DNA from: Candidatus Competibacteraceae bacterium
Lineage (GTDB): Bacteria; Pseudomonadota; Gammaproteobacteria; Competibacterales; Competibacteraceae
Assembly (NCBI GenBank): GCA_012032855.1
Contig: JAAUQA010000282.1
Coordinates: forward strand, 1-5,225
Direction: 5' to 3'
Length of the DNA stretch: 5,225 nt
Below the pieces are notes generated by a model. The model worked only from the letters and a program-made list of their open reading frames with translations. It was not told where the DNA came from and did not search any database. The position numbers and the translations under genes were made by a program. Positions 372-1,805 of the stretch are shown here, in pieces (within the stretch, counting starts at the first letter, position 1; every line of letters starts with the position of its first letter).

Positions 372-1805
372 TCAGGGCTTTCCGCCATGGGAAATGTCGT
401 TCGGGCTGGCGGGAGAGACGTTGCGTTCCCGGCCAACATGGCGGCGCACCCACTTTTCGAATTCAACGACGCAATAAACCATCAGCCCGACACCCGTGAT
501 ATAAAGCCAGGAAGCGGCGTCAAGCGGCGCGGTGTGGAAGAGTGCATTCATGATCGGGAGATGAGTGAAGGCCAGTTGAGCTCCAAGCATGGCGCCGATT
601 CCGGCGAAAATCCAGCGGTTGCTTCCAAGACCCACGCAAAACATGGAATGCAGCAAGGACCGGCAATTGAGCAGGTAGAAGAGCTCGACCATCACAATGA
701 CATTGGCGACGGTCGTGCGCGCCTCGATGAGGTTCTTTCCGCGCACGTGCTGTTCCCACAGGAACGCGCCAAACGCGCCCGCCAGCATGAGCAGCGTGAC
801 GAGGCCGGTGCGCATGACCAAGGGATAGGTGAGAATGGGTTGATCGGGCTCGCGCGGAGGCCGGCGCATCAAATCCCGCTCCTTCGGCTCGAAGACAAGC
901 ATCAACCCAAGCAGAATCGCCGTCGTCATGTTGATCCACAACAATTGCACGGGAAGCGCCGGCAAGGCGGTGCCCAGAAAAATGGCCGACAGCAGGATCA
1001 GGGCTTCTCCGCCATTGGTCGGCAGGGTCCAAATGATGAATTTCGTCAAATTATCAAACACCCCGCGCCCCTCCTCCACCGCCGCCTCGATGCTGGCAAA
1101 ATTATCGTCGGTGAGCAGCATGTCGGCCGCGCCCTTCGCCACGTCGGTGCCGGTGATGCCCATGGCCACGCCGATGTCGGCCTTTTTGAGGGCCGGCGCA
1201 TCGTTGACGCCATCGCCGGTCATGCCCACCAGATGGTGCTGGTCTTGCAGCGCTTTAACCAGAGCAAACTTATGCTCCGGGAATACCTGGGCAAAACCAT
1301 CGGCCTGCATCAGTTGCTGGCTAAGATCAGCGCGCATCCTGCCATCGTCACCCAGACCGAGCTGGTTAACCGCCAGAATATTCGAGCCGAGACCGAGCTG
1401 AGCGGCTATCTCCTTGGCGATAGCGAGATTGTCGCCCGTGACCATCTTGATCCGCACGCCGTGGGCGCGGGCGCTGGTGATCGTTTCGGCAGCATCTTCC
1501 CGGGGCGGATCGAAGAGCGGCAGCAAACCTAGGAAGTTCCAGCCATGGCCGTCATTACGGGCTACGCCCAGCGCCCGATAGCCTTTGGCGGCGATTTCAT
1601 TGACGGTTTGTTCCGCTTGTGCCCGGGTAGCGTCATCCACGTGGCAGAGCTTGAGAATGACTTGAGGCGCGCCTTTGCTGACGCTGAAAGTACCGTTACC
1701 GTCACTCGTCAGGGTCGCTTCGGTCCGTTTGCCGACCGGGTCGAAGGCAACCAGTCCCAGAGCTAGATAGAGCAGGTAGTCGCCGATAGTGAGTACCGCA
1801 CTTTT
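372..1805 (-). pseudogene. Mosaic, truncated P-type cation-transporting ATPase (P3A-like front, P2-like C-terminus)
   Basis: The frame is open from just after a TGA (1808-1806) to TGA at 374-372, 477 residues, with no initiation codon before GTG at 1640. Residues about 3-19 (AVLTIGDYLLYLALGLV) resemble transmembrane segment 3 of P3A proton ATPases. They run straight into FDPVGKRTEAT (21-31) of the nucleotide-binding domain, so segment 4 and the DKTGT phosphorylation site are absent. Next come KGAP (44-47, ATP binding), DPPR (99-102), the TGD hinge (123-125) and GDGVNDAP (197-204). After IGVAM (215) the text becomes GITGTDVAKGAADMLLTDD and a membrane domain typical of P2-type cation pumps (LLWINMTTAILLGLMLVFEP and further helices). 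Intact members are roughly 800-900 residues. Without the actuator domain and the phosphorylated Asp it cannot run a P-type cycle. Either it is a relic of deletion and recombination, or an assembly chimera. Confidence 0.8.

What the first reader, a model, noticed from the sequence alone, without database searches (positions are those of the whole stretch)
1130..1223. ATPase switches subfamily at its most conserved motif
Upstream of GDGVNDAP (in reading direction) the protein is P3A-like: VSKGAPQVIL, ADGFAQVFPEHKFALVKALQ. From GITGTDVAKGAADMLLTDDNFASIE onward it is P2-like, with a P2 membrane domain (LLWINMTTAILLGLML). P3A pumps normally continue here with a VADATDAARAAAD-like segment. The switch lies in a stretch where unrelated ATPase genes share DNA identity. 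That is where homologous recombination between paralogues, or a misjoin of metagenomic reads, would occur. If real, it is an unusual hybrid pump. If not, the left (1 to about 1150) and right parts come from different genomes. GC is similar on both sides, so composition does not settle it.
Basis: partly seen in the sequence, partly recalled or inferred. Interest (0 to 1): 0.7.

Follow-up and report, generated by a model that had tools for sequence, protein, structure and literature searches.

The report
Chimeric contig, not a hybrid pump
The apparent hybrid ion pump is most likely two ordinary pump genes from different bacteria glued together by mistake at a stretch where such genes share DNA, so it is ordinary and does not look like a new kind of pump.

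Summary
The switch is real in the letters. On the minus strand, 1224-1745 is a P3A (H+-ATPase) fragment and 372-1175 a P2A C-terminal half; they meet inside the 48 nt (1176-1223) encoding MTGDGVNDAPALKKAD. The P2A half is up to 86% identical to full-length pumps, mostly Verrucomicrobiota where named; the P3A half up to 68% to H+-ATPases. Trees of the halves disagree. The combination is a singleton on this 5225-base record. The P3A part lacks 138 residues holding DKTGTLT, present in 109 of 109 comparable homologues, and its homology stops near 1800. P2 and P3A genes share exact runs of 20-35 nt at the join in 35 of 552 pairs, in none of four neighbouring stretches. Two other P3A-front/P2-back proteins (P0088, P0100), joined at the same motif, are singletons on short contigs and do not form a family. 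Verdict: an assembly or amplification chimera, probably with more than one join. Raw reads, the decisive test, were not available.

The parts
372..1175 (-). C-terminal half of a P2A-type cation ATPase (PF00689), closest to Verrucomicrobiota pumps
   Evidence: TIGR01522 187 bits vs TIGR01647 69 for 372-1226; PF00689 157.7 bits; up to 86% identity to ~904-aa proteins, 8 of the 9 organism-named rows Verrucomicrobiota; 79% in a Verrucomicrobiota species genome
1176..1223 (-). Join: MTGDGVNDAPALKKAD, a stretch shared by both subfamilies, in which the P3A-to-P2A switch takes place
   Evidence: column comparison; mean P2-P3A DNA identity 80%, exact runs up to 35 nt, 35 of 552 pairs >=20 nt, against 0 of 552 in each of four neighbouring 48-nt stretches
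1224..1745 (-). P3A (H+-ATPase) N/P-domain fragment
   Evidence: TIGR01647 197 bits for 1198-1640; up to 68% identity to H+-ATPases, full-length ones ~830 aa; in the P3A clade
1746..1751 (-). Second join: M3 segment fused in frame to the N domain, 138 residues incl. DKTGTLT missing
   Evidence: motif spacing 14 residues here, 152 in 109 of 109 homologues in which both motifs were recognised
1752..1799 (-). P3A M3 segment AVLTIGDYLLYLALGL
   Evidence: matches the M3 segment of P0134/P0136/P0138
1800..2045 (.). Unassigned DNA; P3A homology ends abruptly at about 1800
   Evidence: the ATPase frame is closed beyond 1805; only weak Pfam matches (E 0.07 and 0.17, below cut-off) in the frames tried
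2046..2742 (+). Lysophospholipid acyltransferase gene, read in three successive frames (two frame changes)
   Evidence: PF01553 in two frames, 29.7 bits (above the 23-bit cut-off) and 21.7 (just below); 70-73% DNA identity over 107-135 bases to 3 plasmid acyltransferase genes; first piece 58% and 61% identical in two gammaproteobacterial genomes
2782..4769 (+). 4-alpha-glucanotransferase (GH77) gene with one frame change near 3440-3492
   Evidence: PF02446 matched by both ORF pieces, consecutive profile positions

Best explanation
The open frame 375-1805(-) is not one gene. A metagenome (or amplified-DNA) assembly joined the C-terminal half of a Verrucomicrobiota-like P2A ATPase gene to the middle of a P3A H+-ATPase gene, probably but not surely gammaproteobacterial, across the 48-nt stretch that encodes MTGDGVNDAPALKKAD, where such genes can share exact words of 20-35 nt. 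The frame stays open there because the two genes were joined at homologous positions (inferred). The right-hand part carries further suspect joins and frame changes, which suggests a low-quality contig. Shown: the mosaic, the different relatives, the shared DNA among relatives, the missing catalytic segment, the lack of a second copy in what was listed. Inferred: that the sequence comes from a metagenome, and that the joining happened in silico or during amplification and not in a cell.
For: Different subfamily best models for the two parts. Different best relatives: 86% to P2A pumps, 8 of 9 organism-named rows Verrucomicrobiota; 68% to P3A pumps. Front inside P3A (clade of all 114 P3A, the two hybrids and the window, support 1.0; inner clade of 6 P3A with Sedimenticola's P0138, 0.86); back inside P2 (44 P2 plus window, 0.93). 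P0002 is one sequence on one 5225-base contig. P2-P3A pairs share >=20-nt exact runs at the join in 35 of 552 pairs, 0 of 552 in each of four neighbouring stretches. Codon usage: left vs P3A p=0.046, left vs second GH77 piece p=0.0005, P3A vs that piece p=0.27. A second break at 1746-1751 removes DKTGTLT, present in 109 of 109 comparable homologues. None of 31 P3A matches in 30 of 369 gammaproteobacterial genomes carries the P2 back of P0100 (at most 2 candidates scored per genome). [quoted passage not shown]
Against: No reads or coverage were available. The shared stretch (48 nt) is shorter than ordinary reads, so a well-covered assembly should cross it correctly; the paper just cited also says that de Bruijn assemblers either fragment at such places to avoid chimeric contigs or assemble a consensus. 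The frame is open for 477 codons across two joins. GC is nearly equal on both sides (0.596 and 0.594), and the P3A-left codon contrast is weak (p=0.046). P3A genes also occur in Verrucomicrobiota (12 of 288 genomes at E<=1e-35, up to 58% identity), about as close as the best of 30 gammaproteobacterial genomes (59%), and of the 7 organism-named P3A rows only 2 are gammaproteobacterial (Sedimenticola, Thiogranum), the other 5 being labelled Desulfobacterales (3), Thermodesulfobacteriota and Deltaproteobacteria; so the P3A part's source group is a best guess. One Verrucomicrobiota genome (G296) holds both types, so recombination inside one cell is possible. The shared exact DNA was shown for relatives, not for the two parent genes, which are not held; the window's own stretch matches its nearest held P2 and P3A relatives at 71-88% per 24-nt bin.
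Confidence: 0.88

Rival explanations
1. A real recombinant pseudogene: in some bacterium a P3A gene and a P2A gene (one perhaps acquired from another phylum) recombined at the conserved motif, and the product has since lost its catalytic segment.
For: Homologous recombination would favour the same shared stretch; both pump types occur in one Verrucomicrobiota genome, G296, and 15 of the 30 P3A-bearing gammaproteobacterial genomes also have a P2 match; frame changes in neighbouring genes would fit decay.
Against: The exact hybrid was not listed elsewhere; the left part has codon usage different from the second GH77 piece (p=0.0005); two abrupt joins without a stop inside 477 codons do not look like gradual decay.
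Confidence: 0.08
2. A working hybrid pump: a P3A catalytic head driving a P2-type membrane domain, as part of a family that also includes P0088 and P0100.
For: P0088 and P0100 have the same P3A-front, P2-back layout with a join at the same motif; P0100 keeps DKTGT and scores 685 bits against TIGR01647, above its cut-off of 615.5. In the tree of the listed proteins alone their back halves fall in one clade of four with two P2 proteins (support 0.77).
Against: The window has no DKTG in any of its six frames. With gammaproteobacterial P2 loci added, the back halves of P0088 and P0100 separate: P0088 sits with L102 (support 0.92), P0100 with L091-L093 (0.94). They are closer to plain P2 pumps (78% and 67%) than to each other (61%), their front halves are 53% alike, and 14 of 14 such P2 loci fetched have P2 fronts. 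None of 31 P3A matches in 30 of 369 genomes follows P0100 beyond residue 608 of 737 (at most 2 candidates scored per genome).
Confidence: 0.02

Closest known systems
P2A-type bacterial cation ATPase (TIGR01522-like; several relatives are named 'cation-transporting ATPase F'), Verrucomicrobiota
   Same: 372-1175(-): membrane domain PF00689, ITGTDVAKGAADM, up to 86% identity
   Different: The front is not P2A here: P3A-like N/P domain, no DKTGT
P3A plasma-membrane H+-ATPase (TIGR01647), e.g. of Sedimenticola thiotaurini (P0138, 62%)
   Same: 1224-1745(-): N/P-domain motifs, up to 68% identity
   Different: 138 residues with DKTGTLT missing, no ATDAARAAAD continuation, no P3A membrane end
Chimeric contig in a metagenome assembly
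   Same: Parts with different relatives joined at a conserved stretch; the difficulty is described in PMC11443906 (passages)
   Different: The passages speak of strains and 16S genes; here the parents are paralogous families, probably from different phyla

Membership tests
P3A H+-ATPase (TIGR01647) | Whole-protein score above the curated cut-off | tested here: not met
   259.3 bits vs cut-off 615.5; the frame is a fragment
P3A H+-ATPase (TIGR01647) | DKTGT phosphorylation site | tested here: not met
   DKTG absent from all six frames of the window; the segment that holds it is missing, 109 of 109 comparable homologues have it
P3A H+-ATPase (TIGR01647) | P3A continuation (ATDAARAAAD) and P3A membrane end after GDGVNDAP | tested here: not met
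   P2-type residues from 1175 downwards
P2A cation ATPase (TIGR01522) | Whole-protein score above the curated cut-off | tested here: not met
   279.6 bits vs cut-off 798.3; its full-length relative P0003 also stays below it, 679.2
P2A cation ATPase (TIGR01522) | Cation_ATPase_C membrane domain (PF00689) | tested here: met
   156.4 bits vs 27.3
P2A cation ATPase (TIGR01522) | P2-type N/P-domain front | tested here: not met
   front groups with P3A, support 1.0
Assembly chimera | Parts place in different clades with different relatives | tested here: met
Assembly chimera | Join lies where the parent families share exact DNA words | tested here: met
   shown for relatives (35 of 552 pairs >=20 nt), not for the parents themselves
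Assembly chimera | Join not seen in an independent contig | tested here: met
   P0002 has 1 member on 1 contig; the next hits in the list are plain P2 pumps (120 of 7999 scored proteins listed)
Assembly chimera | No spanning reads or a depth step at the join | not testable with these tools
   no reads held

The most novel reading that the evidence does not exclude
The GDGVNDAP stretch is a natural recombination hotspot at which P3A heads are swapped onto P2 membrane domains; the window, P0088 and P0100 would be three independent products, of which P0100 keeps DKTGT and the N and P domains and could be a live hybrid pump.
Probability: 0.05. Interest if true: 0.6.

Novelty: not a real feature. 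Interest (0 to 1): 0.1.

Why it matters
If the hybrid were real it would show that catalytic heads and transport domains of different P-type ATPase subfamilies can be exchanged in nature. As it is, it shows how a conserved P-type ATPase motif can seed in-frame chimeric genes in public protein collections: two further candidates (P0088, P0100) carry the same kind of join.

Tried and rejected
Natural hybrid family (P0088 and P0100): rejected, because their back halves belong to common gammaproteobacterial P2 pumps (110 of 369 genomes have a match at E<=1e-72; 14 of 14 fetched loci have P2 fronts) and separate in a tree that includes those loci.

Same-genome origin by neighbourhood: a pattern search for a cyclic-nucleotide-binding-like ORF in the loci held at that time printed nothing; it had no positive control and says nothing. 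GH77: weak matches in 3 of 30 P3A-bearing genomes, 0 of 369 genomes at E<=1e-30 (again without a positive control), two weak plasmid matches labelled Rhodobacteraceae and Sphingomonas; so the right-hand genome was not identified and P3A-GH77 linkage could not be shown. The first acyltransferase piece was sought in 19 of the 31 P3A-bearing gammaproteobacterial genomes then held: two good matches, three weak. Near DNA search of plasmids with the whole window: no match. Rfam: no match. Repeats: only short pairs of 14-18 nt. The unassigned stretch 1800-2045 stayed unassigned. The genome-contig scan gave 59 loci; in 58 the P2A half matches at 48-67% and the P3A half at 40% at most, i.e. plain P2 pumps; L059 is a weak partial match.

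Structure prediction was not run: a model of a fragment without its catalytic segment would not tell a chimera from a real gene.

Full report
What the window holds. On the minus strand a frame is open from 1805 down to 375 (477 codons), with its stop at 372-374; the listed ORF is 372-1640, 422 aa. To the right, on the plus strand, lie an acyltransferase gene in three successive frames (2046-2742), a GH77 4-alpha-glucanotransferase gene in two (2782-4769) and an unknown ORF from 4886. No whole genome is held for the window, and the protein search lists its protein as one member on one contig of 5225 bases, so the window is probably the whole record.

The switch is real in the letters. NCBIfam gives TIGR01647 (P3A) 197 bits against TIGR01522 (P2A) 95 for 1198-1640, and TIGR01522 187 against TIGR01647 69 for 372-1226. 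In the column comparison the window follows P3A homologues up to LVG (1224) and P2A homologues from IGVAMGITGT (1175). The 16 residues between, MTGDGVNDAPALKKAD (1176-1223), are the same in both types except for the second lysine, which is Q in the eight plain P2 and P3A homologues shown and R in P0088 and P0100.

The two halves have different relatives. The P2A half finds ~904-aa P2 pumps at up to 86% identity; of the 9 rows that name an organism 8 are Verrucomicrobiota and one, a partial protein, is labelled Burkholderiaceae (Phragmitibacter placed). In 288 genomes of the phylum of G002, the genome in which a Verrucomicrobiales locus lies, 5 match at E<=1e-100, the best at 79%. The P3A half finds H+-ATPases, full-length ones ~830 aa, at up to 68%; the best organism-named one is Sedimenticola thiotaurini, a gammaproteobacterium, at 62%. 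Of the 250 other proteins listed by the three searches, the 131 of the first two match the P2A half at 47-86%, and the other 119 match it with 36.6 bits at most; P0088 and P0100 alone match both halves well (48% and 60%; 47% and 57%). FastTree trees of front and back (225 proteins plus the window; 25 left out for lack of the exact motif or of length) put the front inside P3A (support 1.0) and the back inside P2 (44 P2 plus window at 0.93). Codon usage of the left part differs weakly from the P3A part (p=0.046) and clearly from the second GH77 piece (p=0.0005), whereas P3A and that piece do not differ (p=0.27).

Results that do not fit neatly. P3A genes also occur in 12 of 288 Verrucomicrobiota genomes at E<=1e-35, with up to 58% identity to the window's P3A half, against up to 59% in the 30 P3A-bearing gammaproteobacterial genomes. 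Of the 7 organism-named P3A rows only 2 (Sedimenticola, Thiogranum) are gammaproteobacterial, 5 belong to deltaproteobacterial groups by their labels. So the source group of the P3A part is a best guess, resting on the inner clade and on the acyltransferase matches next to it (58% and 61% in 2 of 19 genomes; three weak others). GC does not separate the sides.

The P3A part is itself broken. In 109 of 119 listed P3A homologues both the M3 motif and the FDPV-KRT motif were recognised, and in all 109 they lie 152 residues apart with DKTGTLT between; in the window they lie 14 apart. The other 10 lack one motif by the pattern used (5 are fragments of 456-530 aa). So 138 residues (414 nt) are missing, and DKTG occurs in none of the six frames. 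Upstream of about 1800 the sequence no longer resembles P3A. Whatever joined these pieces, the frame as it stands lacks the phosphorylated aspartate that the pump cycle needs (motif named in PMC10654040, passages).

Why the join is where it is. In 73 distinct 600-nt stretches around GDGVNDAPAL from the held loci (46 P2, 12 P3A, 15 unclassified and set aside), the 48-nt stretch has a mean P2-P3A DNA identity of 80%, and 35 of 552 pairs share an exact run of at least 20 nt (17 at least 25; maximum 35). In the four neighbouring 48-nt stretches mean identity is 33-53% and 0 of 552 pairs reach 20 nt. [quoted passage not shown] passages seen). The stretch is shorter than ordinary reads, so thin coverage or chimeric DNA fragments would have to be assumed.

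Is there a natural hybrid family? The protein search turned up P0088 (496 aa, MAG 'Thiotrichaceae', 2028-base contig) and P0100 (737 aa, 2802-base contig), each one member on one contig, both P3A in front and P2 behind. Among the listed proteins alone their back halves fall in one clade of four (0.77). But P0088's back is 78% and P0100's 67% identical to plain gammaproteobacterial P2 pumps, against 61% to each other; their fronts are 53% alike; and 14 of 14 such P2 loci have P2 fronts. In a tree with those loci P0088 pairs with L102 (0.92) and P0100 with L091-L093 (0.94). A search of 369 genomes of the class of Zooshikella (Gammaproteobacteria) with P0100 gave 31 matches in 30 genomes at E<=1e-150, all of which leave P0100 between residues 561 and 608 of 737 (at most 2 candidates per genome were scored). 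The P3A loci checked (18 loci, 14 distinct genes) all end in a P3A membrane end. So the three hybrids are separate joins at one motif, not a family. Recurrence fits a repeated artefact; repeated natural recombination is not excluded. In the rows listed by three paper searches (4 of 4, 15 of 356 and 10 of 250 papers) no title or abstract start speaks of such hybrids; that is a thin search.

Conclusion. Best explanation: a chimeric contig with joins at 1176-1223, at about 1746-1751 and near 1800, in a record with further frame changes. Raw reads would settle it and are not at hand.

Noticed in passing
window 1746-1799, minus strand: P3A M3 segment fused in frame to the N domain; 138 residues with the DKTGTLT site are missing, and P3A homology stops at about 1800 against unassigned DNA.
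   Followed up: yes
window 2046-2742 and 2782-4769, plus strand: Acyltransferase gene with two frame changes and GH77 glucanotransferase gene with one: either sequencing/assembly errors or decay. The GH77 type had only weak matches in the gammaproteobacterial genomes sampled.
   Followed up: partly
proteins P0088 and P0100 (related sequences): Two other P3A-front/P2-back proteins joined at the same GDGVNDAP motif, each a singleton on a contig of 2028 or 2802 bases; probably further chimeras in public collections.
   Followed up: partly
window 1-222, minus strand: Short open-ended ORF with a serine run; its C-terminal part looks (recalled; Pfam gave no match) like the start of a cyclic-nucleotide-binding regulator.
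   Followed up: partly
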